DNA of 64,000 nt from Hemibagrus wyckioides. Taxonomy: Eukaryota > Chordata > Actinopteri > Siluriformes > Bagridae. Below the pieces are notes generated by a model, which worked only from the letters and a program-made list of their open reading frames with translations, was not told the DNA's origin and searched no databases. The position numbers were made by a program, and so were the translations under genes. Positions within the stretch are counted from its first letter, which is position 1; each line of letters begins with the position of its first letter. The stretch is taken from positions 8,764,001 to 8,828,000 of the forward strand of contig NC_080727.1 in the NCBI RefSeq assembly GCF_019097595.1, in the 5' to 3' direction. Positions 9,838-55,397 of the stretch are shown in pieces.

Positions 9838-12800
9838 TCATCATCATCTGTAGCCGGGTCACGGGGGCAGCAGTCTAAGCAGGAATGCCCAGACTTCCCT
9901 CTCCCTAGCCAATTCCTCCAACTCTTCCGGGGGATTTCCAAGGCGTTCCCAGGTCAGCCGAGAGACATAGTCCCTCCAGCGTGTCCTGGGTCTTTCCCAG
10001 CCACTTCGCACTCGGCTGCGAACTGCCCCAGCACACGCTGTAAGTCCTGGCTCAAAGGAGCCAACATGACAACATCATCTGCAAAAAGCAGAGATGAAAT
10101 CCTATGGTCCCCAAACCGGACTTGCTCCACCACCTGGCTGCGCCTAGAAATTCTGTCCATAAAAATAATGAACAGAACCGGTGACAAAGGACAGCCCTGG
10201 TGGAGTCCAGTGTGCACTGGGAACAGATCTGACTTACAGCCGGCAATGCGAACCAAGCTCCTGCTCCAGTCATACAGAGACCAAAAAGCCCTTAACAGAG
10301 GGCCATGGACCCCATACTCCCAGAACACCTCCCACAGAATGCCACTAGGGACACAGTCTAATGCCTTCTCCAAGTCCACAAAACACATGTGGACTGGTTG
10401 GGCAAACTCCCATGAACCCTCAAGCACCTTGTGAAGGGTATAGAGCTGGTCCAGTGTTCCACAACTAGGATGAAAACCGCATTGTTCATCCTGAATCCGA
10501 GGTTCGACTAAAGGTCTCCAGTACCCTGGAATAGACTTTCCCTGGGAGGCTAAGGAGTGTGATCCCCCTGTAGTTGGAACACACCCTCCGATCCCCCTTC
10601 TTAAAGAGAGGGACCCCGGTCACCCAGTCCAGAGGCATTGTCCCTGACTGCCACACTATGTTGCAGAGACGTGTCAGCCAAGACAGCCCCACAACATCCA
10701 GAGACTTAAGGTACTCGGGGCGAATCTCATCCACTCCCGGCGGCTTGCCACCAAGGAGCTGCTGGACTACCTCAGTGACTTCAGCTTGGGTAATGGATGA
10801 ATCTACCTCTGAGTCCTCAGCCTCTGCTTCCTCTACAGAAGGCGTGTCAGTGGGATTGCGGAGATCCTCTAAGTATTCCTTCCACCTTCCGACAATATCC
10901 CCAGTCAAGGTCAGCAACTCTCCACCCGCACTGTAAACAGTGTTGGCAGAGAGCTGCCTTCTGAGGCGTCAGACGGTCTGCCAGAATTTCCCTAAGGCCA
11001 ACCGATAGTCCTTCTCCATGGCCTCACCGAACTCCTCCCAGACCCGAGTTTTTGCTTCCACAACCACCCGGGCTGCAGCTCGTTTGGCCTGCTGGTACTC
11101 ATCAGCTACCTCTGGGGTCCCACGAGCCAACCAGGCTTGATAGGACTCCTTCTTCAGCTTGACTGCATCCCTTACTTCCAGTGTCCACCACTGGGTTTGG
11201 GGATTGCCGCCACGACAGGCACCAGAGACCTTGAGGCCACAGCTCCTAATAGCTGCGTCAACAATGGAGAAGGAGAACATGGTCCACTCAGACTCAATGT
11301 CCCCAACCTCCCTCGGAATCTTGTCGAAAACTCTTCCGGAGGTGGGAGTTGAAGACCTCCCTAACAGAGGGTTCAGCCAGACGTTCCCAACAGACCCCCA
11401 CAATACGGTTGGGTCTGCCAAGTCTGTCCGGCATCCTCCTCCACAAGCAGATCCAACTCACCACCAGGTGGTGATCAGTTGACAGCTCAGCCCCTCTCTT
11501 CACCCGAGTGTCCAAGACATATGTCCAAAGGTCACACGACCACAAAGTTGATCATCGACCTCCGGCCTAAGGTGTCCTGGTACCACGTGTACTGATGGGC
11601 ACCCTTATGCTTGAACATGGTGTTCTTTATGGACACTCTGTGGCTAGCACAGAAGTCCAATAACAGAACACCACTCGAGTTCAGATTGGGGGGGCCATTC
11701 CTCCAATTCCTTCCATAACTATGGAGTCCCCAGTCGGGGTGCCTTCTAGCACCCCTCATAGTGTCTCCAAGAAGGTTGGGTACTCCACACTGCTGTTCGG
11801 CCCATAAGCTGAAACAACAGTGAGACCCCTATCCCCTACCCGAAGGCGCAGGGAAACCACCCTCTCGTTTACTGGGGAAAACTCCAACACATGGCGGCTG
11901 AGCTGGGGGGCTATAAGCAAGCCCACCCCAGCCTGCCGCCTCTCACCATGAGGCACTCCATGTCGGTAGTGTGTAACACGGTTCGAGCACTTTTATAAGT
12001 TGCTGAAAGCCCACATCACCGATCACAGAAAATGGCTGCAATTCTTTAGCAATTATTATATTATAATTATTTTTTGTGTCTCTTGGAACCAGTTGGGTAT
12101 GAATGCTGAAGGAATCAGCTAGGGACTGTTACTTTTTGGATGCCTGTGTTACCTGCTCTGCCATCCTGCTTCCAGACAGTGATATCATGGGGTGATGGAG
12201 CTGCAGATGTGCAGTCATACTGGAAGTATTTCCATGTCAGTAGGTAACTCATGTGTAACAGTGCTTGCACACAGTCATTTTGTTTTGTTTAGCATTTTTT
12301 AATCAGCATCATAGTCAACAACAAATCCGAAATGTTCCCACACCAAAGATTTGAAAGATAGCGCTGCTTCCTCGTATTTCTGTCTCATTTCACCGCTCAC
12401 CATGGTTAGACTGTGAAATCTGACACCAGCATCGCAAGCATGGTTACTGCCCCTAACTTTAGCGCTCACTGATTGGATATTTACTCGCAGGGAGGCATGT
12501 CTGTCTCAGCCCGTAGACATACAGTGCAGGCAAACAAACAGGCAGTTCACAGAGTAATAAAACGCATAGTTATTATTATTAAGGAAACAACTAAAAAACC
12601 ACAGTTAACATACGCGTATTGAACCGTGGAGGCCGTACCGAACGGTTCAATATTATATTGAGTATTGTGGCATCCCTAAGGAGTTGGGTTCCAGAGCCCC
12701 GGCTGTGCGTGGAGGCGAGCCCAACTATCTCTAGCCGGTACCACTCAGGTACTCAACCACTCCAGGTTGGGGCCCCGGTAACGCCACTCCGGGCAACATA

Positions 12801-35350: not shown

Positions 35351-35860
35351 AGGCTTGGTCACACTACAAGACTTTAACCATCAGCAGATCGCTTTGCTGT
35401 TCAGACTACATGACTTCACCATATGTCCCCAAACCACGTTTTGTCACGAAAACACACGACAGGTGGATCTGGAAATGACGCAAGACTTTCGGTTTGTTTT
35501 GAAAATGCACATCGGCAGGAGTCTCACTCTTGTTAATTTATTAAAATTAACTTAAAAAACTTTTCTTCCAGTGACCTCAACCTGTTGACTTGCTCTCTCA
35601 TGGAGGTCGTAGCTGGAGGTCGTAGCTGTAATTGACACCACGTGATGTCGAGTTGGCCGACCATCCCAGATTTAACATGCCAGATATCTGGATTTTGTCT
35701 GCGAGGTGTCAGCAAGCCTCTTTGATGCGTCGTTGAGTAGTTCACACAAAGATTGCACAGCGCTGATCACCCGCTGACTTTCCCACGAACGCAGCCCGAT
35801 CTGTCAGCGAGCTCGTTAATTTGCAAATCGGGCTTAAAATCCTGTAGGGTGAACTAGGCT
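35351..35860. mobile_element. PIF/Harbinger-type MITE with TTA target duplication
   Basis: Left end AGGCTTGGTCACACTACAAG; reverse complement of the right end AGCCTAGTTCACCCTACAGG. TTA lies on both sides (35348-35350, 35861-35863). Internal segments (GACACCACGTGATGTCGAGT, TTGACTTGCTCTCTCATGG) match the 23.5-kb MITE in reverse orientation. It is 510 bp long, so it keeps material the shorter copy lost. Small frames inside are not genes. Confidence 0.92.
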
Positions 35861-35863
35861 TTA

Positions 35864-36330
35864 GTTCTTGTCTATCAGGCTGAAGAGTTGTGCTCATTAG
35901 AATCAGCTGGTGTAGTTAATGAATGGAACAAATGTGGCAGGACTTTAACTATCTGAAGGCAGGGTGTCCAGCTCTGGACAAACACCTAAAACTCAAGAAT
36001 TCTTAAGTGAACTATGAACTTCTGTGCCACATTTCTGTATATGATCTTCAGGAAGCAATCAAGCAGACATGAATTGAACGGGTGACACCAGAGTACTGCA
36101 GGCATCCTTCTGACTCTATGCCCAGCCGGATCCAGAAGGTTTTGAAGAATAATGCACTTCATATTATCAATATTATGAAATAAATTAAATATTATGAACT
36201 TCTAAATACTGACTTGCTGTATAGCAATTTCATTACATAAATTCTCATTTTGATTGTTGTTAAAAAAATAATCATTAAAGCTTTGTATTTCACTTTAGTT
36301 TCAATACTTTTGGCCCCTGTGTGTGTATAT
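35864..36330. mobile_element. Repeat remnants, possible Tc1-like terminus
   Basis: TTTCAATACTTTTGGCCCCT followed by GTGTGTGTATA at about 36298-36328 looks like a Tc1-type terminal repeat. Upstream is unassigned interspersed-repeat-like sequence ending GGTGTCCAGCTCTGGACAAA. No opposite terminus was found. Confidence 0.35.
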
Positions 36331-36499
36331 GCATGTATGTGTGCATGGTTGTTTATCAAAGCAGCATTAGATCACATGCACTTTGTGTCCTAGCACTTTT
36401 CTAACAGTTAAGTTGTAAAAATGCATGAAAAATGTACCTGAATACACTCCCCAAAGGGTTTGAAGTGGCAGAGATTGAAGAAACTGTCAAGGTTTTTGG

Positions 36500-36780
36500 A
36501 CGGCTGTCGGAACCCCGGCGCCCCCTCCGAGTGGACATATCACAGGGTGGAATTTTTGTTTGTATCTATTTCTCTTAGCTTTCCCAATGACCTCCACAAT
36601 CTATAAAACTTAGCCGTAATAAGAGATCTCAGTCAACAGAGGAGAAGAAGCGGGTTTCTTTATTCAGTCATGCAGTCAACAACATGCATATCTGAAGAGA
36701 GCAGCTGGTCTCTCCAACCCCGAAAAAGTCCCGTCTACTTGTACCCCAGGCGCCCTGGGGCGCCTCCTTTTCTTTAATTT
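36500..36780 (-). promoter_or_regulatory. Hairpin and AATAAA block, LTR-like on the minus strand
   Basis: On the minus strand a perfect 7-bp stem (CCCCAGG/CCTGGGG, 36744-36760, 3-nt loop) precedes an AATAAA (plus-strand TTTATT at 36659) by about 80 bases. That is followed by a U5-like stretch with pyrimidine runs. Such an order occurs in the R-U5 part of retroviral LTRs. No partner LTR or primer site is proven. Confidence 0.3.
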
Positions 36781-36980
36781 AAATGTTTCCAGCAATTTCC
36801 CATTATATTCAGTGTATGGCTACTTTAGTCTCTCCTTCCTTAGTTTACATACGTTTCCCAGTTCCCATTATTTTCGCATTTGTCCCGATACCGCCCCTAA
36901 ATTGATACCATCCTCCCCTCGATGATGTCAATTTTCCTCCTCTCCAGTTCCCCTTATTTTTAGGCTAAGTCAACAATTTT

Positions 36981-36988
36981 TATAAAAG
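36981..36988 (+). promoter_or_regulatory. TATA box of the 37-kb spliced gene
   Basis: A canonical TATAAAAG lies 114 bases upstream of the predicted ATG. A short inverted repeat (GGCGC... GCGCC, 36990-37009) overlaps the expected start-site region. Confidence 0.6.
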
Positions 36989-37094
36989 TGGCGCTTACTT
37001 ATAGGCGCCATTTCCTTATTGACTTCATTTGACAGTCACCTCTTAAAGGTGCTTCCTCGGCTCATCCTGACCTCGCGCGTTGCCCTCCATAACA

Positions 37095-37927
37095 ATGTGT
37101 AAGTACCTTGCTCTCTTCCTCTGTCATGATGACTTTTCCCTCTACCTACTTGATCTAAGTTTTATTTACTAATTTTAAAATAAGCTGTGCCATTAAGCTG
37201 CCTCATATCCTTTTCTCTTTTCATCACTGTTGGTTGCTAGTATTCCAATGCTATTGTCTCCTCTACCTGCCCATCACTGTCATGTCACAGTGACCTGGCC
37301 TACTTCCCACACTGTGTTCCTTTTGCCTTAGTACACGCTCTCTTTTGCTGACTACATAGTCACGCAATATGCACTTCACTCATCTCTTCCCATTTCCCAT
37401 TATTTTTCCTAGCTCAGTCAGCCCGCCGCGCTATCTTCCGGAGAAGTCCCAGGGGTGCTCTGCGACGCTATCGCCAGTATCAGCTATCCTGTCTGGCCAT
37501 TGAACTTACTGGTTTCCTGGAGCACCTATCTGAATCCTCTATTCCTGAGTGTCCTTACCTCGCTCACCATATCGTGAGAGATACCGTCTGTCTTGATCAG
37601 AGCACCCAATTTCACCCCACAACCTGTGATCAGTCTACTCAGACCTTCTACTGGCATTGGACACGCACCACCTCTCAAGGCGTCCAGATTGAGGATTTCC
37701 CTGTTGAGATCTCCTCTAATGATTCTTCCTCTGACTCTTCATCTCCTAATTCCCCTGACATTCCCCAACTTTCTCCTGAATTTGTGCCTATGCCTTACAG
37801 TGTTCATGATATTCCTCAGTCTTCTCCTGACTATTCGCCCCCAACTTCTCCTCAGGATCCCGAGATTCCGTCTTCTACAACTGACCCCCCGGTCCCACTG
37901 ATCCCATTGGATAGGCTGGCTGACTGA
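37095..37927 (+). CDS. Compact two-exon gene, 172 codons, unknown function
   Basis: The ATG (37095) is followed by one base and a strong donor (ATGT/GTAAGTACC, intron from 37099). A 314-nt intron ends in a pyrimidine tract and TTTTTCCTAG (37412). Joining ATGT to CTCAGTCAGCC gives an unbroken 172-codon frame to TGA at 37925. The N-terminal third is basic (RRAIFRRSPRGALRRYRQYQ). A short hydrophobic-mixed part follows (LSCLAIELTGFLEHL). The C-terminal half is acidic and rich in Ser and Pro (SSNDSSSDSSSPNSPDIPQL; the motif SPDYSPP). No signal peptide or membrane segment. The basic-then-acidic build would suit a nucleic-acid-binding regulator or a viral accessory protein, but that is inference. 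A TATA box and a poly(A) signal frame it neatly. It matches no transposon protein I know and lies between a MITE and a Gypsy element. Confidence 0.6.
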
Positions 37928-37947
37928 GTTGTAACTCCTAATGTTTC

Positions 37948-37953
37948 AATAAA
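37948..37953 (+). terminator. Poly(A) signal
   Basis: AATAAA 21 bases after the stop codon, followed by a T-rich tract and the GT-rich CCCAGTGTGGTTATT, the usual layout of a cleavage site. Confidence 0.7.
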
Positions 37954-38242
37954 TCTCTCCTCTTTTCTGTTTCTTCAGTCCCAGTGTGGTTATTATGCTA
38001 GCATGCTGCCATTAATAATTCTGCATGATTATTATAAAGACTGAGGCTATATCTGATTATTATAGCTATTATTAATCAAAGTTAACTACTTAATCAATGG
38101 CTAAATAATTCTTGATAGATACACACTACTCCTAGGCAGAATATTGCTAAGTCAGAGCTTTGAGCATTGAGTACATTATTACTTAAGCTACTTTTAAAGC
38201 TTGGTATATAATTCAACGCTGGGTATATTATTTTTGACTCCG

Positions 38243-41077
38243 ACATGGCGAGTCAGAGGAAGGAGGTTTAGCACAAACCTTGACAAAGTTCTGTATGAAT
38301 GCAAGCAGCAAATTGGCTTAAACAGGATGCCTTCAGAAGTAATGCATGCTATTACTAATGAGGCCTGTTATTTCTGCTTTGGAATGTCCGAATTGGATGA
38401 AGTGCCACCACCTCCATTGAAGCTCTTGCTTGAAGCTTCAGTGTCAAATGTCTCCACTGAGTCTATTATTGGAGCTGTGGGTGACCTATTGTCTAAAATA
38501 GAGAGACCATCACCTTAAGGGGAAGCTGGTAGCTCTTGTCGCCATAGTTTTCTCTGGTACAATACCTACTCCTACAGGAGAGGAGGGTTTAGAACCATGG
38601 CTTGAGCAAGCGTGCCTGATGGTAGAGTGTGACTGTTCCCCCATAGAGAAGCGTTGACGAATTATGGAAAGTTTAAGAGGACGGGCTTTAGCTTTAGTAA
38701 TAGTAGTGCAAACAGCAGCTGTTGATGCATCACCCCTCAAGGTCCTAGATGTTATTGAGAGCTCATTTGGAACTGTTGAGTCAGGTGAAGATCTCTACTT
38801 CAGGCTAAGACTAATGCAACAAGAGCCAAGGGAAAAATTGTCAGATTTTCTGAGGTGACTGGAACAGTCTCTTACAAAAGTTGTTAGTAGAGGTGGTATT
38901 CCTGCTAGTTGTGTGGGTTCTGTCCGGGTAGAACAGCTACTTCGGGGGGCCATACATTCAGATCTGATGCTGGTGCAGCTGAAACTGCGGGAGAGGAGGC
39001 AGAATCCTCCAACATTTTTAGAACTGCTAAGTGAGAGCTGCGCAGAAGAGGAATATGCCACTGCAAGGGTTAAGGTTAATATAGCTGTTCAGAAGGTTCG
39101 TACGGATGTGGGCGCAGACAGTTGACCGATGGACTTTCAGAGCCAAAGAGCTGAAGTCAATGTTCACTGCCATGAACACTAAGCCCTTGTAAAGAGAGGC
39201 CAGTGACTGTGTTGGATCAGATAGGTCAGTCTAATGCTCTTATAACTACAGAGAATGCAGAGATAGCAGCCTTGAAGAAACCAGTCAAGAGATTGCAGTG
39301 TAAAGTGGCCAACAGGGTGGATGATAATGTGTGTACAATTGGTAAGGCATGGAGAGCAGAGCCACCCAGACCTGCTCAAAATGGCCCAAAGCCAACCAAA
39401 TTCTTTAGAGAAAACCAGGGCAAAGTAATTCAAAAGCTCATTTGCTCTCAAGAAAGAGGAGATCAATCATCGGGATTAGATGATAAACTTCCTGATACTA
39501 TATGTTCAGTAAAGAGAAGTGAGGTAACCTCGGTGGGAGGTAAGCACATTCCGAAAGGGCTGATTGGTCCATCTTAATGGACACACGTGGTGATCTGTTG
39601 GATAGTGGTTCACAGGTCACAATAATCTTTGAGACCTGGTATCAGAAGTATTTGCCAGATGTCCCAATTCACCCAGTCTCAGGATTAGCCATCTGGGGAC
39701 TAAGTGAGAGTAGCTACCCCTATTGTGGTTATGTGGTAGTAGACATAGAGTTTCCTGAGAGTGTTATGGGTGCCAGAGAATCTGTCCTAGCACTGAGATG
39801 TCCTAGTCCCAGAACTCCAGATCAGACTCCAGTTATTTTAGGCACCAATGCTAACCTTTTTAAGCGACTGGCCAAGCTGTGCCAAGAGACTGCCGGAGTG
39901 GATATTGCTCAGACACTGGGCATCAGAATTGATGGACTAGTACAGAGTAGCGCTACGGTGGTTTGTGAAGGGGATGATGCTGTAGGATGGGTGAAGTTGA
40001 AAGGGCCAGGTTCACTGACACTACCGTCTAGTAGTGGTTGCTGTGTTGTATGTAGTATAGATTTGAGCCAGCCTTTAGACAAAAAGGTGCTGATGCTGGA
40101 AGCTTCCTCCAAGTTTCCCCTACCAGCTGGAGTGCTACTAACGACAATGGTAGTCCCGAGCTATGAGAGTTGAAACATTTTTCTGTGACACACACAGTCT
40201 ATTTGCAGCGTAGTTCTTCCAGTAGGAACAGTGATGGGTCAGTTGTGCATTGCAGAGCCACTAATGCATGCTCTAATGCTAATGATGGAGACAAGAACTG
40301 AGGCAGCATTGACAGTGTTTGATTCTAGCCTCACTGATTTTGGTGACACGCCTATACCTCAGCAATGGAAAGTCAGACTTCGACAACAACTGTCTAAGCG
40401 ACCCAGTGTGTTTTCTCTACATGAGTGGGATGTTGGAATGGCCAAAGGTGTAGAGCATACATCCACAGAGAGAGGTCCAGGCGATTAGCGCCAGCCAATA
40501 TTGAAGATGTTCGAAAACATTTACAAGACTTGTTGGCAGCTGGCATCATTAGGGAGTCTCGTAGTCCTTATGCTTCTCCTGTAATTGTGGTCCGTACGAA
40601 GAATGGCTGCATCAGGATGTGTGGATTACTGCACTTTGATCGGACTATACCTGATCAATATACTACGCCTCGCATTGACAATGCGCTTGACTGTCAGGTA
40701 GCCGGTGGTTCTTTCTATTAGACTTAAGAAGTGGCTATTATCAGATTCCAATGTCTGAAGTAGATAAGGAGAAATCTGCCTTTATCTGCCCATTGGGGTT
40801 TTATCAGTTTGAGAGAATGCTGCAAGGAATTACAGGAGCCCCGGCAACCTTTCAAAGACTGTTGGCGACATGAGCCTTCTCGAGGTGCTAGTTTATTTAG
40901 ATGACTTGATGGTCTTTGGGAAGTCATTGGAGGAGCACCAACAACGACTCCTAGTACTAGACAGGCTTGAGGAAGCAGGTCTAAAGCTGTCTCTAAACAA
41001 ATGTCAATTCTGTCAGTCCCAGGTGAAATACATGGGGCATATCGTCTCTGCAAATGGTATAGCCACAGATATATTAT
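38243..41077 (+). pseudogene. Gypsy-type LTR retrotransposon gag-pol, broken
   Basis: Domains appear in order on the plus strand. Gag starts near 38243 (MASQRKE), then NLDKVLYECKQQIGL and, later, SGEDLYFRLRLMQQEPREKL and FLELLSESCAEEEYATARVK, a capsid type related to vertebrate PNMA/Gypsy Gag. The zinc knuckle seems deleted (about 39400-39440). The protease reads DSGSQVTIIFETWY with catalytic DSG (39607). The RT region begins RSRRLAPANIEDVRKHLQDL, includes ESRSPYASPVIVVRTKNG, and has the catalytic box VYLDDLMVFG at about 40890. The element stops abruptly after YMGHIVSANGIATD, where a LINE 3' end begins; RNase H and integrase are missing. Stops at 38518, 38856, 39122, 40170 and 40720 and several frameshifts break it. 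Confidence 0.9.
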
Positions 41078-41675
41078 ATAAACTAATCAGGAGGGCTGGC
41101 TTTGTACTTGGCATGGAGCTGGAGCCAGTTCACGTTGTTGAGAGAAGAATGCTGTCAAAACTCCATTCAATCCTGGACAACCCTTCTCATCCACTACAGT
41201 GTGTGCTGGTTGATCAAAAGAACACCTTCAGCCAGAGACTGATCACTGCCAAGTGTAGCATTGAGCGCTTTAGGAAATCTTTCATCTCTGTGGCAGTAAA
41301 ACTGAACAATTTGTCCCTTTCAGTGTTGGGACATTTTCATGTGCAATAATTAATAATGGGTGCTATAGTAATTATAGACCTTTCATGCACATTACAATTT
41401 CACCATTTCCTATCATGTACAATACAACTTTACCATTATCACCTGTTAAAATTAGCACCAATTTACAATCCTTGTGTGCAATATTACAGCTCTACACTAT
41501 TTGTACAGTGTTTGTACAATATCTGTATTTATTCTATTTTACAGTTCAAATAACAGTGTATATATTTCTTTCTTCTATCTTCTATCTTTCTCTTATATTT
41601 TGGTTTTTATTAGAGCAACTGTAACATGGCAAAGGAATTTCCCTCTGGGATTAAAAAAGTTCTTTGAATCTTGAA
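41078..41675 (+). mobile_element. 5'-truncated LINE 3' end (L2/Rex1-like)
   Basis: Starts inside the last coding part (LIRRAGFVLGMELEPVHVVE, RRMLSKLHSILDNPSHPLQC, CSIERFRKSFISVAVKLNNL), continues with an AT-rich untranslated region, and ends with GGCAAAGGAATTTCCCTCTG and GGGATTAAAAAAGTTCTTTG. Its start coincides with the break in the Gypsy element, so either it inserted there with a deletion or the two were joined later. Confidence 0.8.
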
Positions 41676-42298: not shown

Positions 42299-45200
42299 TC
42301 AAAGCTTCTCCAAATTGTCCATCATCGGCTGGACATGCTGCATGAGAAGGCGACAAACTGCATGGGCTAAGGCTGCTGGGTAGTAGAACAGCTCCAGGGG
42401 TTGAGAAAATAGAACTTCACAAAGATCTGTCAGCTGAACCTATTGACAAATAAATCAAACGCACAAATCCAAAAAATTGTCACTGACGTAAAAATACAAT
42501 GCTGAGAATTTATGTATCGTGGCATCAGAAGATACTCTACACTTACGATAAGCTTGTTGAAATGAAGCTGCGTTGCAGGCTCCCACGTTCTGATGAGTGC
42601 CATCAGTCGCTCCAAAAATCCTCCCACAAACTTCTAGAAAAGAAAGACAACAAGCTACATTAATGCCACATCTTATCAGGGTCAACAATATGGGAAAACT
42701 TTCAAGCATCCTTAAAAATCTCCTGATGAGACACTTACTGTCTCAGGTACTAAGCCGCTGGTAAAGCATCGGAAGACGAGCTCATAAAACGCATCCACAA
42801 AGTTGTAATGGTGGAGCTGCACATAGGAGAGAAAATTTTAAAAATAAATTTATATTACTTACGTATTGTAATCCTGATTTCTATGGAATTCAAATGTACA
42901 TTTAAACATGTTATTTTGCAGAGGCATCTGCAAGCTTACATTTTCCTAGGACAGCCCAGCTGCAATGGATCCCTGGTTAGATGGCGTCCTCAGGAATCTG
43001 ATGAGATCCTCGTAGGCCAGCTGCACACGAACTGCCTCCTGTTAAACAACACATCTCTAGAATTCACTTTGGCCATGGTGTTCAATATGGCTAATCAGTT
43101 TAAACCCAAACAAGTAGTAGTATGTAAGCCTAAGCATGTCCAGTTCTCCATTAAAGATACTTATATGATGTAATACATGATCCACATTTCCAGCTGTTGC
43201 ATATCATGTCTTCACCATGTACATTTTATTTTAATATTTATTCTAAGAATGGCCTTAATTCTAAACAGGCTGTGGTTGTTAGAAAACAGAAAAAAAAAAA
43301 GCCTTCATTACCTCATGGTTAATGTAACCATTACAACATTCTGGAGATCTGTAAAAGTATTTTGCACAAAAAAAGTCACCTGCGTGCTAGCTGCTGTCAG
43401 TCGCATCACAATCTTTTTTCCAGCCACAAACAAGAAGTTTTGATTGTGGATGCTGGCCAGCAGAGTCTGAATAGAAGAAAACGCACAATATAAATGAAAG
43501 TGAAGTGGACATTACCTGCGCAATAACAGTGGCTACACAGAGGTTTTACTCACGGCAAATGCCTGGCAGAGCAGGCAGCTTCATGCCGATCTCAGTCACC
43601 CCTCTTTCTCTACGATGGCAGCTAAGAAAAAGGGAAAAGCTTAGTGCATGTTAAACATGAATAACACCATTACAGTTTTAAACTGTGAAGAGGATTGTAC
43701 CTAATAACGGGCACCTCCACCTCCTCAGGGGTCTCCTCACTCTCCTGCAAGCCAAATGAGTAACAAATCATTAAAAGTCACACAGTACATTTTATAGCCT
43801 CCCATTCAGGGGAACAGCAGCATATGTAGATACACATCACTTCTGAAAGGCAGAATTACCTCTGAGTCTGGCTCACTGTGGGGCGACTCGATATATTTCT
43901 TCTCCCAAGTGCAGGTGTCCAGCTGACCATCTGTGGCAATGTGAAGGTATGTGCAGGTCACCTTAAAGGTTTGCTGCTAAATAAACAGAAACAAACAAAT
44001 AAATAAATACATTGACACTGCAGAAAAGTAAAATTCCACAAATTCATGTCAGTGTAATAAATTTACCATGTAACCGTCAAGTGCCACGATGACTGACGCC
44101 TCCACACGGTTACAGGAAACGATTTCCGTAACCCACCCAGATACGCTCTTAAGAGAACAATTTAAAGTGAACACAATTAGTCGTTGCAATTAAAAGTATC
44201 GTGATGCCACAACCAATAATCCCTTACCTGAATGCCAGTGAAGCAGTCCTCGATTCTGATGTCATAAGGGAATCCCTGCTAAAGAAAATCGACTTAAACT
44301 CAAGATCTATTTCACAAAAACGCTCATCTAATAATTATTCATGTTAGTTCTCTTCTTCAGAGTAATTAAATTTCTAATTACCAGGTGATTCAAGTAGTGC
44401 GTCTCAGTGGTGCTGAGCCAGCAGACGCGTCTCTCCGGACCCCTTCTCATCCAGAGGAAGTATCTCCGGATGTCCACTTACTAGAAACAGAGAAACAAAT
44501 CTAAACATTAGAACTTGTACAGAAGGGTGTGTGTGTGTTTGTATCTCAGTTGCAGTGTTGATTAATACCCCAGACTGGGAGCTGGGGAACTCAGAAGAGA
44601 GAAACTGAATATTATGCCAGGCGCTGTCCAGCTCTCCAGCGAGATGTATTCAAAGCCAACAGAAGGGATGGCTCATCAACCTTAATGCACACTAACACAA
44701 TGAGTCGTTTGCACTTAACATGTAACTCCACAATGAATAATCCCTTACCTGAATGTCAGGGAGACGCTCCACAGTGTCAGGAACATGAGAGGATTCCTGC
44801 AAATAATTAGATCAAACTCAAGATCTATTTCAAAAGTGTTCGTATAATAATCAGTGATGTCAATTTTCTCCATCAGAGTAATAAAGACTGTGATTACCTC
44901 CAGATTCAAGCACTGGCTCTCTGTGGTCTCCAAGCACCAGAGCTGACTCTCTGGACCACTGACCATCCCAAGGACATCTTGGTTAACGTCCACTGACTAG
45001 AAACGGAGAAACAAAACTAAACATTAGAACTTGTACAGAAGGGTGTGTGTCTCAACTGAAGCACTGTATAATACCTCAGACTGGGAGCTGAAGGAGACTG
45101 TAGACAGAAGCTGAACATCAGTCAAGGCTCTGTTCAGCTCACCAGCACTGGGAGGCTGTGTAAAAAGCAAAAAGATCACAAGTGCTTTTTATCATAGCAG

Positions 45201-48200
45201 TTTCACACCAACATGTCTAATACTGTCACTTGGAAAATCCAGAGATCATCTTTAGTGAATAAATTACAGGTTTGGTCAGCAGAACGACAGATGAACTGTT
45301 GTGGAGAGGTTTGGTGGGCAGCAGCTGCACTTTCAGCTCAATGAACTTAACACACACATACACACAATTAAAAGCAGCCTACATGATTCAAATGGAGTTA
45401 AAATATGACTATTTTACTGACGCATACCTGGAGGGCAGAGGGAGGATCTGGTGACTCTCTCAGCACATCCACAGACTCTATAATAAATGACTTTTTATGT
45501 GACACAATTTTGATTTTTTTTTACATTTTCTATCGTACATTTAACACCAATAACCGAGTTTATTAGTTAGCAGGTCAAATGAGGAGAAATATTATGTTGT
45601 GTTGAGATCTTAAAATGGATATCCATTGTGGGAAAACAAATTTCCTAGTGTTCTTGCAGAGGAAAGATCACTAACCTATTTGGGAAAGGTCGTAAACATT
45701 CTTTCTCACAACCAAATGGGTTTCAGATCTTGTTGGGTAAACATAGTCTCTAATGGGGTACGGGAAATGTGGGATCTACATTAACACAGCCTGAAGGACA
45801 GCCTACCAAAATCTGTATAAATACCAGAGGTTTCTTGTCTGTTTGGTGGAGATCTTGATGACCACAGAACTGCAACATGCTTCCAAGTCTCCTCGATTGC
45901 TCTTCTACTGGTCTTCGGTTAATTTACAACAGTTGGTGCCGTGACCCGGATAAAAGTTGACACGAGGATCCGATGCCAGAATTCACATCAGTTGGTGCAG
46001 TGAATCTGAGAGAGCTAACTGATCCAGAGCTGAGCCTACACCAGTGATGCTGCTTGTTCCAGACTGATCACCTGAAACTAGTCCAGACTGAACTTCTGCA
46101 ACTCAACTCTCAGATTTGGTTAGTGTCACTCTATGAAACGAACCCTAAAGACCAGTATTTGAGTAATCCAGTTATCCTCTGAAAAGTCAGGGAAGCTTCT
46201 GTACATCCTCTGTTACAGGGAAGGTTAACTACTGTTGTGTGGTAACAAATTGTTTAGCCTCTGTACATCTTCTGTAATGGAAGATTAACTACTGTTGTGT
46301 GGTAACAAATTGTTTAGCCTCTGTACATCTTCTGTAATGGAAGATTAACTACTGTTGGTTTATTTAATTTTTTTTTGTTGTTTTATTAGGGAAGAGTAAT
46401 AAAATGGCAAAAATGGTTAAAAGGAATGCTAGACTTATCCCTACCACTGAGAAAGGTGGATTAGCTACTCCTTTGTGGGAGGATAGTGAATTTAAAACTC
46501 TCTTAGAGGAGCATATGGACTCCATTGTCAAAAAGTCAAACAGCAGGAGGGGACGAAAATATGCCATACATCCAGACAAAGTGTGGTCGATCGAAGAGTG
46601 TAAAAAGGTACTTGCTGCACCCATAAGGAAAATAATGTTAAAGCTATCCTTTAACATTAACATCCATTGTGAGTTTTGTGCGGCTACAGCACAAAGCCAT
46701 ATTCAGAAAATTAGAGAATTGAAGCTGCAAAATAATGAATTGCAGGCATGTGTGTCCTCATTAACTAAGAAATTAAGACAAAAAAATCTTGGCACAAAAT
46801 GATTTAAAGCCTATGCCTGCAGATACTCTTTATCCTGATCTGCAGTCTTTGTTTAACAGTGAGGAGAATGGTGTGTATGGTGATGGTAATGCATGTACAG
46901 GAAAAGTAGCTAGTGGAGTTGAAGTATGTGGAGCATGGAAAAAGGGTCAATGTTGATTCAGTGAAGTTGAAAGTGATCCCTCTGCACCTTCCATAGTTCA
47001 GGTCCAAACAATTATCAAACCAGTAGGACCTGAGATAATTGAGAGATTAGCCCAGAGTTTACCATTAGCACGGGTTAACTTTTCTGAGTTCAGGAGAGCA
47101 TTGTCAAGGAAGATGCGTCTATATGACATGTCTCTGATTGAAATTACTCAACTGATGTCAGATTTTGACCGAGTCTGAGTTTCGCAGTTTTGAAAATCTG
47201 TTGATTCTCATGAGTTCCGAAGTGCTAGTAAAGAGGAACTTCGGGAGGGAGTTCTGACTGTGTTGAAAGAGGTCATTGGTCCAAAAGTAGACTGGTCACG
47301 AGTGAGTAGTTGTGTGCAGAAAAAAGATGAATCTATGAATATACAGAAAGGTTTTGCCAAGCAGCTGCTGCTTACAGCAGTATTGCTGATACCCCTGATA
47401 TAGTGTTAGAGGACAGAGGTCCATTAGTCCGTATATGGTTTTAGCAGGGTACAAGAATGCACTGCCTTTCCTTGACCTCACATGGTCCACTGCACGCATA
47501 AGGACAAACCTGGAAAGACTGGCTACTTGGGAAAAAGATTCAGATGTGAAAGCCAAGGTAAAAATTGCAGAAGCCTCTATAAATAAACCCAGTCCAGAAG
47601 GAAAAAAAGATCTGAGAGTAACAAAAAAGGACAAGTCATTTAAGAGCAAGCCACTGGAACCTAAATGGCAGAGACCATTTCAAGTGTTATTAGTAACGGC
47701 TGCAGCAGTATTGTGTCATGGAAAAAAAACATAGACTCACATTTCCCACTGTAAGGTAGTTCAACTACCTGTAGGGACAGACTAGGACACACGGACCAGA
47801 AAGGAGCCGGAGGAAAGAACTGATGTGCAATAGGCTTCGGGGGTTACCCAAAGGCGAAGATTCCCTAATAGGTTTTCCCTTTTTAGATTATTCCCCACCT
47901 TGACTGGTCCATAGGTGTCAAGGTATATTTGGAGATTAGGGCAAGGAACTACTCTTACAGACACAATCTGCTATACTATCAAAGGCAGCAAAACATCTTA
48001 GATGTAAAAACACTATGTATATAGTTTTTGGGTTTGTGTTCTTAATTATTTTTATTTATTTGTTTGTTTTTTTTGTTTTTGTGTTGGTCTGTTTGTGTTT
48101 TGGACTTTTTCTCGTGTTTCTTCTCCTTTTGTTTTTCATTTTGTATTTGCAGGTATTCATTCCAGAACTCATCACTGCTACACCTGCAAGCGAAGTTCAC

Positions 48201-49838
48201 CGCATACATCTATAGAGGGCCACCATAAACAGAGGAAGAAAACCTTTTAAGGGGAATCTGCAGCCACCGAAGACATCTGACACTTTAGCACACCGAAAGT
48301 TGAAAAATCTGCCACATAGAGATTAAAGTTTGCTTGGACTAATGACTTACATAATGTATACAATTACCCTGCTAATGATCACTATAAGGTTGACTGAGGG
48401 TTTGGAGTCCAAAGCCAATTTGTTTATCTCTTTAATGAATGTCCAGGAATGCATTGTTCTCAGGGAAAGACATATGCATGCCACATGTCCCGAGTGTAGG
48501 GGCAGGTATTCCATGGGTAGCTCACCCAATTTCTGACTGTGACACTTGTGCCTTGTTGCATACTACCATTAGACAGTTCAATAGTAATACATGTCACAAT
48601 ATCACAATTCCACCAGTTGTGCAGTGTTGTATGCCAGGCTCAGATTTCTGCAATCTGACATATGCCATATCCATTATGACTGATCTAATTCTGCCAACAA
48701 CATTTTGGTGGTGTGTTGAATCTTCCTCTGTACTCTCACCCCATTAGGAGAAATTCCATATACAGCATGTGATTTTGTGTATGAAATGGGTATCCCACTT
48801 AAGTCAGCCAAATCACCCCTACCATTGCAAGGTGAATCTAGGGTAGAAACATGTATTAGGCAGACAAATGTGCATGGTTTAAACATTTGGCTGTAAATCA
48901 GTTGTGTGGTACTTCTCTTTACAATGAGCTACCAGCTAATATTAATGGGAGATGTACCTTAGTTTATGCTTTACCGTCTATTAGAGAGACTTTTCCGATA
49001 ACAGTCCCAATCCGAAACAACCATATTAACACCAATCCTCAAGTATTCACTATGAGAATAGTAGCTATACGGTTTTCTAAAATACGCTCCAGAGCTGATA
49101 AATATGAAGTAGACCTCACTGGAGTACACATGCAACAGGGAAAAGTTTGGGAGAAAACAAATGTTTCTTTACAGCAGGACAATACATACCAGTGGGCAAT
49201 ATGTTATAACTGGAATGGTACTATTAAAGAACGGTAAATATTAAATGATATCATACTACTTCAGGTATTCACTGGAAAATTGACTCATTTTAAAGTTTTA
49301 CTCTACTCAATACAATCTTTATCTTGGGATTAGCTACATGCTAAACATATTTGTACCAAAAAGACCGTAGTGTGAGAGCTGGATAATCACTAAGCTTAGC
49401 ATGATTTAGTTATGTTTGTTACTAGTAATAATGTAATTATTACTACTAATAATGTAAGTATTTCAGTGTAAAAATAAAATAAAGTCAAGCTCATCAAATC
49501 GGTGAAGTATTTTGGTGTGTAATTTAAAGCTGTAGGCTAGGTCACTAACTAGCATTAGGCTAATTCTTGACAAAAGAGGATCTCTCTAATGAAGTAGATA
49601 ACATTAGATTGTAACACTGTGTAACCTCAACATGATTTCTTGTAAAATCAGTTGGAGATTAAAGTCACATCCTCCTACCTTGTTGAGGCTGAGGGTGATC
49701 AGGAGGAGTGCTTTCTCTCCACAGGTAGTGGTAAACGCGGTAACCTGCCCCTGCAGACACAACGAGTAGCCCCGTAGCACAGGCGATCTCGCGCACATTC
49801 CAGTTCTTCACTGCCGCTACAAGGCTCCGTAAATCCAT
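42299..49838 (-). CDS. Multi-exon gene with N-terminal membrane anchor; tentatively mitoguardin-like
   Basis: Exons on the minus strand: 49679-49838, 45428-45477, 45075-45155, 44898-44996, 44750-44797, about 44569-44634, 44382-44480, 44228-44278, 44067-44147, 43860-43976, 43701-43744, 43554-43621, 43380-43466, about 42948-43038, 42739-42816, 42547-42633, 42299-42439. Most have AG acceptors and GT donors and join in phase. Exon 1 starts MDLRSLVAAVKNWNV and has a hydrophobic anchor (EIACATGLLVVSAGAGY). The middle is acidic; the end reads LHHYNFVDAFYELVFRCFTS, KFVGGFLERLMALIRTW and YYPAALAHAVCRLLMQHV. The order NFLFVAGKKIV, YEDLIRFLRTP, then NFVDAFYELV recalls the Miga/FAM73 domain of outer-mitochondrial-membrane mitoguardins; this is a guess. 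Oddities: exon 7 opens with TAA if spliced like its twin, exons 12 and 13 do not match in phase, and exon 14 lacks a clear donor. It may be decaying or alternatively spliced. Confidence 0.7.
44228..45155 (-). repeat. Tandem duplication of an exon triplet within the gene
   Basis: Exons at 45075-45155, 44898-44996 and 44750-44797 are repeated as 44569-44634, 44382-44480 and 44228-44278. The introns match as well: TAAACATTAGAACTTGTACA and GAAGGGTGTGTGT occur in both. The second and fifth exons have equal length (99 nt). In the downstream copy the first codon TCA has become TAA and the first exon's acceptor is lost. Confidence 0.85.
45595..45931 (+). mobile_element. Endogenous retrovirus 2: 5' LTR
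   Basis: Begins TGTTGT and ends ACAACA, a perfect 6-bp terminal inverted repeat, directly before the primer binding site. A TATA box (TATAAATA) is at 45816-45823. No matching 3' LTR was found near the end of env, so the provirus is truncated at its 3' side. Confidence 0.8.
45934..45951 (+). promoter_or_regulatory. Primer binding site, tRNA-His type
   Basis: TGGTGCCGTGACCCGGAT begins two bases after the LTR. It differs by one base from the tRNA-His primer binding site used by HERV-H and some fish retroviruses. It fixes both the LTR end and the plus-strand direction. Confidence 0.85.
46199..46357 (+). repeat. 60-bp tandem repeat in the retroviral leader
   Basis: About 2.6 units with an exact 60-bp period. 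Units at 46261-46320 and 46321-46357 are identical over their overlap; the first has a few changes. Key words: CTGTACATCTTCTGTAATGG and TGTGTGGTAACAAATTGTTT. It lies between the primer binding site and gag. Confidence 0.9.
46404..49237 (+). pseudogene. Endogenous retrovirus 2: gag, integrase tail and env remnants
   Basis: The first gag frame (46404-46802, 132 codons) is intact over its length and basic, with a coiled-coil-like end (ELKLQNNELQACVSSLTKKL). A second gag part follows at about 47000-47430 with stops. At 47435-47740 gag-like sequence passes directly into an integrase C-terminal domain (PKWQRPFQVLLVTAAAVLC), so protease, RT, RNase H and the integrase core are deleted. Env remnants occupy about 48320-49237 with scattered Cys and N-x-S/T sites and several frame breaks. 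The whole lies antisense in the first intron of the 42-50 kb gene. It cannot encode a working virus. Confidence 0.75.
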
Positions 49839-50191: not shown

Positions 50192-51430
50192 TATATTGCC
50201 AAAAGTATTCGCTCACCTGCCTTGACTCGCATATGAACTTAAGTGACATCCCATTCCTAATCCATAGGGTTCAATATGACGTCGGTCCACCCTTTGAAGC
50301 TATAACAGTTTCGACTCTTCTGAGAAGGCTGTCCACAAGGTTTAGGAGTGTGTTTATGGGAATTTTTGACCATTCTTCCAGAAGCGCGTTTGTGAGGTCA
50401 CACACTGATGTTGGACGAGAAGGCCTGGCTCTCAGTCTCCGCTCTAATTCATCCCAAAGGTGTTCTATCGGGTTGAGGTCAGGACTCTGTGCAGGCCACT
50501 CAAGTTCATCCACACCAGACTCTGTCATCCATGTCTTTATGGACCTTGCTTTGTGCACTGGTGCACAGTCATGTTGGAAGAGGAAGGGGCCAGCTCCAAA
50601 CTGTTCCCACAAAGTTGGGAGCATGGAATTGTCCAAAATGTCTTGGTATGCTGAAGCATTCAGAGTTCCTTTCACTGGAACTAAGGGGCCAAGCCCAGCT
50701 CCTGAAAAACAACCCCACACCATAATCCCCCCTCCACCAAACTTTACACTTGGCACAATGCAGTCAGACAAGTACCGTTCTCCTGGCAACCGCCAAACCC
50801 AGACTCGTCCATCAGATTGCCAGATGGAGAAGCGAGGATTCGTCACTCCAGAGAACGTGTCTCCACTGCTCTAGAGTCCAGTGGCGGCGTGCTTTACACC
50901 ACTGCATCCGACGCTTTGCATTGCACTTGGTGATGTATGGCTTGGATGCAGCTGCTCGGCCATGGAAACCCATTCCATGAAGCTCTCTGCGCACTGTTCT
51001 TGAGCTAATCTGAAGGCCACATGAAGTTTGGAGGTCTATAGCGATTGACTCTGCAGAAAGTTGGCGACCTCTTTGCACTATGCGCCTCAGCATCCGCTGA
51101 CCCCGCTCCGTCAGTTTATGTGGCCTACCACTTCGTGGCTGAGTTACTGTCATTCCCAAACTCTTCCACGTTCTTATAATACAGCTTACAGTTGACTGTG
51201 GAATATTTAGGAGCGAGGAAATTTCACGACTGGATTTGTTGCACAGGTGGCATCCTATCACAGTTCCACGCTGGAATTCACTGAGCTCCTGAGAGCGACC
51301 CATTCTTTCACAAATGTTTGTAAAAACAGTCTGCATGCCTAGGTGCTTTTGTACACCTGTGGTCATGGAAGTGATTGGAACACCTGATTCTGATTATTTG
51401 GATGGGTGAGCGAATACTTTTGGCAATATA

Positions 51431-53816: not shown

Positions 53817-55397
53817 TACAGTTTTATGCAAAAGTTTGGGCACCCCTGAAAATGATCATAATTTCAATTTATAATCTGCTTGGTTTTCAAAGTAGCAACT
53901 TCATTTGGATATAATTTATAGCTTATGGAAACAGCAACATTTCAGATCTGAAATAACATTTATTTAATCAACAGATACAATGCAATGTAAATCATAACAA
54001 AAACAGACAGGTGCAAAAATTTGGGCACCCCAATGAAATAATGACATCAATATTTAGTTGAGCCACCTTTTGCTGAAATAACAGCCTGTAGACGCTTCTT
54101 ATAGCAAGTGATAAGTCCTTGAATTCTGCCTGCAGGTATTTTGGACCATTCTTCTTTGCAAAATTTCTCCAGTTCAGTCAGGTTTGATGGCTGGAGAGCA
54201 TGAACAGCCCTTATCAAATTAATCCATAGATTTCTGATGATGTTCAAGTCTGGGGACTGGGATGGCCATTCTAGAACATTGTATCTGTGTCTGTGCATGA
54301 ATTCCTTGGTGGATTTGGAACAGTGCTTTGGGTCATTGTCCTGCTGAAACAACCAACCCCGGCGTAACTTCTTGACTGATTCTTGAACATTGTTCTTGAG
54401 AATCTGCTGATACTGGGTGGAATCCATGTGACCCTCAACTTTGACAAGGTTTCCAGTACCTGTGCTTGCCACACAGCCCCACAGCATGATGGACCCTCCA
54501 CCATGCAAAGCCCCTCTGGTTGTGACCAAATAACTTGTGGTTTCATCTGTCCAGAGGACATTATTTCCAAAACAATTCTGGCTTGTCCAGATGAGCCTTT
54601 GCATACCTTAAACGACTCTGCTTGTTAGCAGTGCGCAGAAAAGGCTTTTTCCACATCACCCTTCCATTCAGCTGTTCCTTGTGCAAAGTTCACTGGACTG
54701 TAGAACGATGTACAATGACATTGTCAGCAGCAAGATGTTCTTGGAGCTCTTTGGAAGTGGTTTGTGGTTTGACCGAGACCATTCTAACCATTCTTCGACT
54801 TTGCCTTTCAGATATCTTTCTTGGTCTGCCACATCTTTCTTTCACAAGGACTGTTCCTGCGGCCTTCCATTTCCTAACTATATTTCTAACTGTGGAGACG
54901 GAGACTTTAGACCTTTGTGACAACTTTTTGTATCCTTTATCCTTTAAATTTATGTTGATGAATTATCCAAGTTTTTAGGTCATTAGAGAGTTCTTTTGAG
55001 GTTCCCATCTTGCTACCTTTCCATAGAGATGAAGGAAAAGCACAACTACCAATCAGCTGCCTTAAATATCTTTTTTCATGATTGGTTTTACCTGTTTCTT
55101 TTTTTCCTTTCTATTGCAATCAATTAGTATTAAGTATTAAGTGACTACATGTATTCAAATCCACACCAATGAGAGGGTGGCCAGACTTTTGCACAGCCTA
55201 TTTTTCACTTTGAATTTTATTTTACACAACACAGTACTGCTACATTGAGAATTTCTGTCTGAAAAACATCACATTATCCAGCCTTCTCTAAAAAAAATAA
55301 AAATAATAATGGCATATCACTACAATCTTTTTTGTAGAGAAAGAACACATTATTATAAAGCCATAGAGGGGTGCCCAAACCTTTGCATAAAACTGTA
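53817..55397 (-). mobile_element. Tc1-like transposon, complete ends, dead transposase
   Basis: Inverted repeats TACAGTTTTATGCAAAAGTT at the left and its counterpart ACCTTTGCATAAAACTGTA at the right. On the minus strand 54690-54923 encodes the second DNA-binding motif (KVSVSTVRNIVRKWKAAG). 54047-54604 encodes the core with LWTDET (first Asp), a deletion that brings it straight to [19 protein letters not shown] (second Asp) and PDLNIIRNLW, where the third catalytic residue, normally Glu in NPIENLW, is Arg. The frame ends normally in VISAKGGSTKY. Confidence 0.93.

What the first reader, a model, noticed from the sequence alone, without database searches (positions are those of the whole stretch)
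36981..37953. Self-contained spliced gene of unknown family
Within 975 bases there is a canonical TATA box, an ATG one base before a strong donor, a 314-nt intron with pyrimidine tract and AG, a 172-codon frame opened only by splicing, a stop, an AATAAA and a GT-rich element. All parts are in order and correctly spaced. The product is basic at the N-terminus and acidic, Ser/Pro-rich at the C-terminus, and I recognise no family. In such repeat-rich DNA a coding frame with this much transcriptional architecture is unexpected. It could be a viral or LTR-borne accessory gene, or a young host gene.
Basis: partly seen in the sequence, partly recalled or inferred. Interest (0 to 1): 0.75.

Follow-up and report, generated by a model that had tools for sequence, protein, structure and literature searches.

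The report
Dispersed spliced gene of catfish

Summary
The anatomy is confirmed base by base: TATAAA 36981, ATG 37095, donor 37099, acceptor ending 37412, 172 codons, TGA 37925, AATAAA 37948. The splice has independent support. A protein search found three NCBI gene models of the catfish Hemibagrus wyckioides, on three contigs. Two of these four relatives differ from the window by more conservative changes than neutral simulation gives; two do not. So this is a multi-copy, apparently lineage-restricted gene family. No Pfam, PHROGs, PDB or viral-contig relative was found. The product has a significant arginine cluster (0 of 5000 shuffles) and an acidic Ser/Pro-rich tail. Best reading: a nuclear regulatory gene carried by a virus-like, probably retroviral, element. 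Its ATG-plus-one-base exon resembles deltaretroviral tax. But no LTR pair, primer site or termini were found, so membership is not shown. 'Self-contained' is doubtful: the strongest local splice acceptor lies after the stop.

The parts
36500..37990 (+). approximate extent of the C/T-rich insert that holds the gene; ends not defined
   Evidence: CpG o/e 0.10 in 35900-36500, 0.68 in 36503-36980, 0.99 in 36981-37098, 0.18 in the intron, 0.52 in exon 2, 0.18 in 37990-38240; pyrimidine fraction 0.65 for 36700-37989 against a maximum of 0.583 in 1204 other windows, either strand. Caveat: 35601-35900, outside, also has CpG o/e 0.90-0.96. No TSD-flanked TG..CA or TIR ends above chance
36981..36986 (+). 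TATA box (TATAAA)
   Evidence: consensus match only
37095..37098 (+). first coding exon part: ATG plus one base (T)
   Evidence: 3 of 3 H. wyckioides models start M-S as this exon predicts
37099..37412 (+). intron, 314 nt, GTAAGT...CCTAG
   Evidence: CpG o/e 0.18
37413..37927 (+). exon 2: rest of codon 2 to residue 172 and TGA stop; Arg-rich N-terminus, core 25-92, Ser/Pro-rich acidic tail
37948..37953 (+). AATAAA polyadenylation-type signal, GT-rich stretch about 30 nt downstream
   Evidence: consensus match only
37977..37978 (+). AG of the strongest splice acceptor of 36700-38050; conflicts with a simple 3' end at AATAAA
   Evidence: rank 6 of 4162 AG sites in the window

Best explanation
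A copy of a dispersed, catfish-lineage spliced gene that spread as cargo of a virus-like mobile element, most likely a complex-retrovirus-type element. It encodes a small nuclear regulatory protein. Shown: the open spliced frame, relatives on three different contigs, an arginine cluster at the N-terminus, a Ser/Pro-rich acidic tail, and conservative change in two of four relatives. Inferred: transcription from the TATA box at 36981; splicing brings an AUG-U exon to exon 2; the Arg-rich segment (about residues 6-22) gives nuclear entry and nucleic-acid binding; the following hydrophobic segment (25-40) gives self-association; the acidic Ser/Pro tail binds partners. Together it would regulate its own element's RNA, as Rex/Rev or Tax/Tas do. 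The window copy is a stranded insert that has lost or never had the rest of the element.
For: Three of three H. wyckioides models found, on contigs of 34.9, 22.2 and 29.6 Mb, share the frame and the M-S start that the splice predicts. Strand-asymmetric stretch of about 1.5 kb, CpG-rich outside its intron, between CpG-poor flanks and beside a broken gypsy element with CpG o/e 0.33. Eight Arg in 17 residues, reached in 0 of 5000 shuffles. Against the window, P0003 changes are more conservative than in all 1000 neutral simulations and P0002 than in 968 of 1000. ATG plus one base before a splice is the HTLV-1 exon-2 arrangement in the primer table of PMC4488940 (passages; that this ATG is tax's is recalled). 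Complex fish retroviruses with small ORFs on sub-genomic mRNAs exist (SnRV; PMC12193657, passages).
Against: No LTR pair, no primer-binding site for 16 recalled tRNA 18-mers at up to 4 mismatches, no termini with target duplication. No gag, pol or env belongs demonstrably to it. No relative in IMG/VR by two pattern scans. Nuclear-export-like patterns are no better than chance (857 of 1000 shuffles have one). P0001 (2 changes) and P0004 do not show conservative change (683 and 198 of 1000 simulations at least as conservative), and the core is not especially spared in P0003 or P0004. High CpG alone does not prove youth: 35601-35900, outside, is as CpG-rich. The fold model is poor (mean pLDDT 42).
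Confidence: 0.42

Rival explanations
1. A young, lineage-specific host gene family of bagrid catfish: a de novo or fast-evolving gene with its own promoter, duplicated to several chromosomes.
For: Own TATA box, intron and AATAAA; the only relatives found are catfish gene models plus one short contig ORF of unnamed source; conservative change in P0002 and P0003.
Against: Copies on three different large contigs; placement in a compositionally distinct insert among old repeats; the window copy carries private changes, including an 8-residue loss that none of 4 relatives has.
Confidence: 0.22
2. Cargo or regulatory gene of a DNA element: a DNA transposon or an integrated DNA virus early region. 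The protein would be an E1A-like or transposon-accessory regulator.
For: Compact promoter-intron-gene-polyA unit; no retroviral parts attached; composition unlike the retroelements in the window.
Against: No terminal inverted repeats with target duplication above chance; no Pfam, PHROGs or PDB similarity; no LxCxE motif; no viral-contig relative in two pattern scans.
Confidence: 0.22
3. A decaying repeat copy with no function now: the frame is inherited from an active element and the catfish models are repeat-derived annotation.
For: Private changes at residues 48 and 94 and loss of an 8-residue and a 1-residue segment; catfish model tails are mutually unrelated, as if run into random flanks; no expression evidence available.
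Against: Frame, splice sites and TATA box are all still intact.
Confidence: 0.14

Closest known systems
Uncharacterised H. wyckioides genes LOC131356269, LOC131341990, LOC131357984
   Same: 98, 87 and 83% identity over aligned columns (BLASTP 94, 79, 74%); same M-S-Q-S start
   Different: each runs on past LDRL/LDSL into an unrelated tail of 53, 39 and 33 residues, where the window copy stops after two more residues; all have an 8-residue segment that the window copy lacks
Deltaretrovirus tax (HTLV-1)
   Same: coding exon of ATG plus one base spliced to the main coding exon (PMC4488940 primer table, passages; assignment of that ATG to tax is recalled)
   Different: no sequence similarity found; here a TATA box lies 114 bp upstream of the ATG and the intron is only 314 nt; no provirus around it
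Rev-like proteins (Rev, Rex, Rec, Rem, Rej)
   Same: N-terminal arginine-rich segment, helix predicted there at low confidence; features of the family as in PMC5568270, passages
   Different: no export signal better than chance, no target RNA known, no sequence match
Accessory genes of fish foamy-like endogenous retroviruses (FLERV acc genes) and snakehead retrovirus ORFs
   Same: unknown-family fish retroviral proteins, 52 to 465 residues (PMC5512871 and PMC12193657, passages)
   Different: no sequences compared; FLERV acc genes are described as open frames within proviruses, none seen here

Membership tests
Gene of a complex retrovirus | lies in a provirus with LTRs, primer site and gag-pol-env | tested here: not met
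   no LTR pair, no PBS in the insert, no termini with TSD; the one near-perfect PBS (His type, 45934) lies 8 kb away at the start of a separate broken ERV
Gene of a complex retrovirus | initiator codon supplied by a separate spliced exon (as tax) | tested here: met
   ATG-T exon, 3 of 3 catfish models agree; analogy, not homology, and no RNA reads seen
Rev-like protein | arginine-rich motif | tested here: met
   8 Arg in 17 residues, 0 of 5000 shuffles; RNA binding not tested
Rev-like protein | nuclear export signal C-terminal to the motif | tested here: inconclusive
   patterns present but 857 of 1000 shuffled proteins also have one
Rev-like protein | binds and exports its element's RNA | not testable with these tools
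   no element RNA known
Known protein family | significant profile or sequence match | tested here: not met
   Pfam best E 0.27 for the window protein and 0.097 among 5 members, PDB best E 1.7, PHROGs none for the window protein, best E 0.032 for P0004
LTR-borne or TIR-borne gene | TG..CA or inverted ends with target duplication | tested here: not met
   one 5-bp candidate against a mean of 0.83 in 30 mononucleotide shuffles; starts 36400-36759 and ends 37940-38249 examined
Host gene family | conserved synteny or single-copy ancestor in related fishes | not testable with these tools
   no fish genome could be read; the genome search 'own' did not complete in 8 of 8 tries

The most novel reading that the evidence does not exclude
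The gene is the surviving regulator of an undescribed complex retrovirus lineage of catfishes. It would have a tax-like ATG-plus-one-base exon but its own promoter beside it, and a protein unrelated to Tax, Rex, Tas or any known regulator; one or more catfish copies may have been kept by the host.
Probability: 0.2. Interest if true: 0.65.

Novelty: new member of a known kind. Interest (0 to 1): 0.4.

Why it matters
It shows that a spliced gene with a 4-nt first coding part, read from raw sequence alone, can be matched by independent gene models and belong to an unnamed multi-copy family. If the carrier is a complex retrovirus it would add a regulator class in ray-finned fish; if it is host-kept it would be a case of a young regulatory gene born from a mobile element.

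Tried and rejected
Chance open frame: rejected by the three catfish models and the M-S start.

Gene belonging to the adjacent Ty3/gypsy element (PNMA match 38859-39125, RVT_1 matches 40691-41349): rejected as unlikely, because that element has CpG o/e 0.33 and broken frames while the insert is CpG-rich outside its intron and its gene intact, and no second copy lies elsewhere in the window.

Gene belonging to the ERV with a His-type primer site at 45934: no evidence; different strand composition, no shared sequence.

Solo LTR or TIR element from about 36500 to 37990: no termini with target duplication above chance. A 14-nt inverted pair (36485/38272) was judged chance by my own estimate of about 0.5 expected, not by a call.

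Fold comparison: not run, as the model was too poor. The 18-mer primer sites, splice matrices, NES patterns and LC8/SIM/CTD-like motif ideas are recalled and come from no call.

Not in print: a search of the open-access library for the three LOC names gave 0 papers. The listings (20 of 24 papers shown; 15 of 62; 12 of 33; 8 of 22) showed no title or abstract start on this family; subscription papers are not covered.

Full report
The window is very probably fish DNA. Frames in it match Pfam HTH_Tnp_Tc3_2 and DDE_3 (Tc1-type transposase), RVT_1 and PNMA, and the closest relatives of the gene are gene models of Hemibagrus wyckioides, a bagrid catfish. No tool named the source species.

Observation. 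The product has 172 residues, net charge +7 in residues 1-20 and a negative charge in each later block of 20. Read without splicing, the frame begins at 37352 and has no in-frame ATG before residue 128 of the product, so most of the protein needs the splice or a non-ATG start.

Independent support for the splice. The first protein search gave 3 proteins at E up to 1 among 68 candidates: P0001, P0002, P0003, all uncharacterised H. wyckioides models on contigs of 34.9, 22.2 and 29.6 Mb. I could not see the DNA of those copies nor whether the models rest on RNA reads; an unspliced ATG in all three is unlikely but not excluded. A profile search (7995 candidates sharing most words were scored) added P0004, a 150-residue ORF on a 1396-base contig of unnamed source, 59% identical over 78% of the query; it matches from about residue 21-25 on, and its N-terminus does not (15 of 16 aligned sites differ). 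A third search with the first 118 residues found nothing new among 4057 candidates; its length limit of about 208 residues excluded P0001 and P0002 and would exclude other long models.

Selection. Only proteins of the relatives were available, so I asked whether amino-acid changes against the window in residues 25-170 are more conservative (BLOSUM62) than random nucleotide change gives (1000 simulations each). Simulations at least as conservative as observed: P0001 683 (only 2 changes, uninformative), P0002 32, P0003 0, P0004 198. The core 25-92 changed less than expected in P0002 (3 against a mean of 7.8, 14 of 1000), but not in P0003 (10 against 11.6, 326 of 1000) or P0004 (22 against 19.5, 865 of 1000). 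So protein-level constraint is supported for two of four relatives. Gaps are whole codons by construction of a protein comparison, and annotated models are chosen for open frames.

State of this copy. It has C at residue 48 where 4 of 4 relatives have S, I at 94 where the 3 catfish models have T (P0004 has S), and lacks an 8-residue and a 1-residue segment that 4 of 4 relatives have. The frame is nevertheless open.

The insert. From about 36500 to 37990 the DNA is CpG-rich outside the intron and strongly pyrimidine-rich on the coding strand: 0.65 in 36700-37989, above the maximum (0.583) of 1204 other windows on either strand. The immediate flanks are CpG-poor; a stretch further left, 35601-35900, is CpG-rich too, so CpG alone is a weak clock. 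I searched for direct repeats, termini with target duplications and primer-binding sites and found none that belong to it. The ends are therefore undefined.

3' end. AATAAA at 37948 with a GT-rich stretch is plausible, but the strongest acceptor of the region ends at 37978 (rank 6 of 4162), and the three catfish models leave the shared sequence at one point (after LDRL/LDSL) into mutually unrelated tails that have no good match in the window (best E 1.2 or worse). This would fit a donor at that point joined to different downstream exons, or model artefacts. I cannot decide; it weakens 'self-contained'.

Product. No family: Pfam best E 0.27, over five members 0.097; PDB best 1.7; PHROGs none for the window protein; IMG/VR none in two pattern scans; phage records none; prokaryote genomes none in one pattern scan. 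AlphaFold2 on five sequences gave mean pLDDT 42, with a helix at about residues 14-38 of the product; this is weak. The arginine cluster is significant (0 of 5000 shuffles); export-signal patterns are not (857 of 1000 shuffles have one). The protein has 7 SP/TP sites, six of them from residue 112 on, one YSPPTSP stretch and eight CK2-type sites. The LC8-like TQT at 77 and a SUMO-interaction-like stretch at 99 are recalled motif ideas, untested.

Mechanism. An arginine-rich N-terminus, a hydrophobic helical stretch and an acidic Ser/Pro-rich tail, translated from a spliced message whose first coding part is ATG plus one base, is the layout of small regulators of complex retroviruses. HTLV-1 exon 2 ends ATGG before the splice (primer table of PMC4488940, passages; that this ATG is tax's is recalled). 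Rev-like proteins combine an Arg-rich motif with helices, and Rex is described as highly disordered (PMC5568270, passages). This is likeness of working, not membership: the provirus features were tested and not met here. A host gene family and a DNA-element gene remain open at about one in five each.

Verdict. It is one copy of an apparently undescribed multi-copy family. The carrier is undetermined.

Noticed in passing
37930-37990: Strongest local splice acceptor (ends 37978) overlaps the supposed polyadenylation region; possible further exon downstream.
   Followed up: partly
36855-36874, 36941-36960, 37387-37406: A 20-nt motif like TTCCCAGTTCCCATTATTTT occurs twice upstream of the promoter and once at the end of the intron just before the acceptor.
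   Followed up: no
45934-49237: Apparent broken ERV: His-type primer site (1 mismatch to a recalled 18-mer) and a weak MLV-integrase C-terminus match at 47399-47734 below the curated cut-off, the only telling Pfam match in 3 of its frames scanned; 60-bp tandem repeat at 46194-46357.
   Followed up: partly
38241-41349: Broken Ty3/gypsy-like element with PNMA (38859-39125) and RVT_1 (40691-41349) matches; the start at 38241 is my reading.
   Followed up: partly
50271-51393, 54047-54607: Tc1/mariner-type transposase remnants on the minus strand.
   Followed up: no
9954-10619: Reverse transcriptase (RVT_1) on the minus strand, probably of a LINE.
   Followed up: no
44170-45146: Direct repeat of about 470 bases at 71% identity, start-to-start about 506-524.
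   Followed up: no
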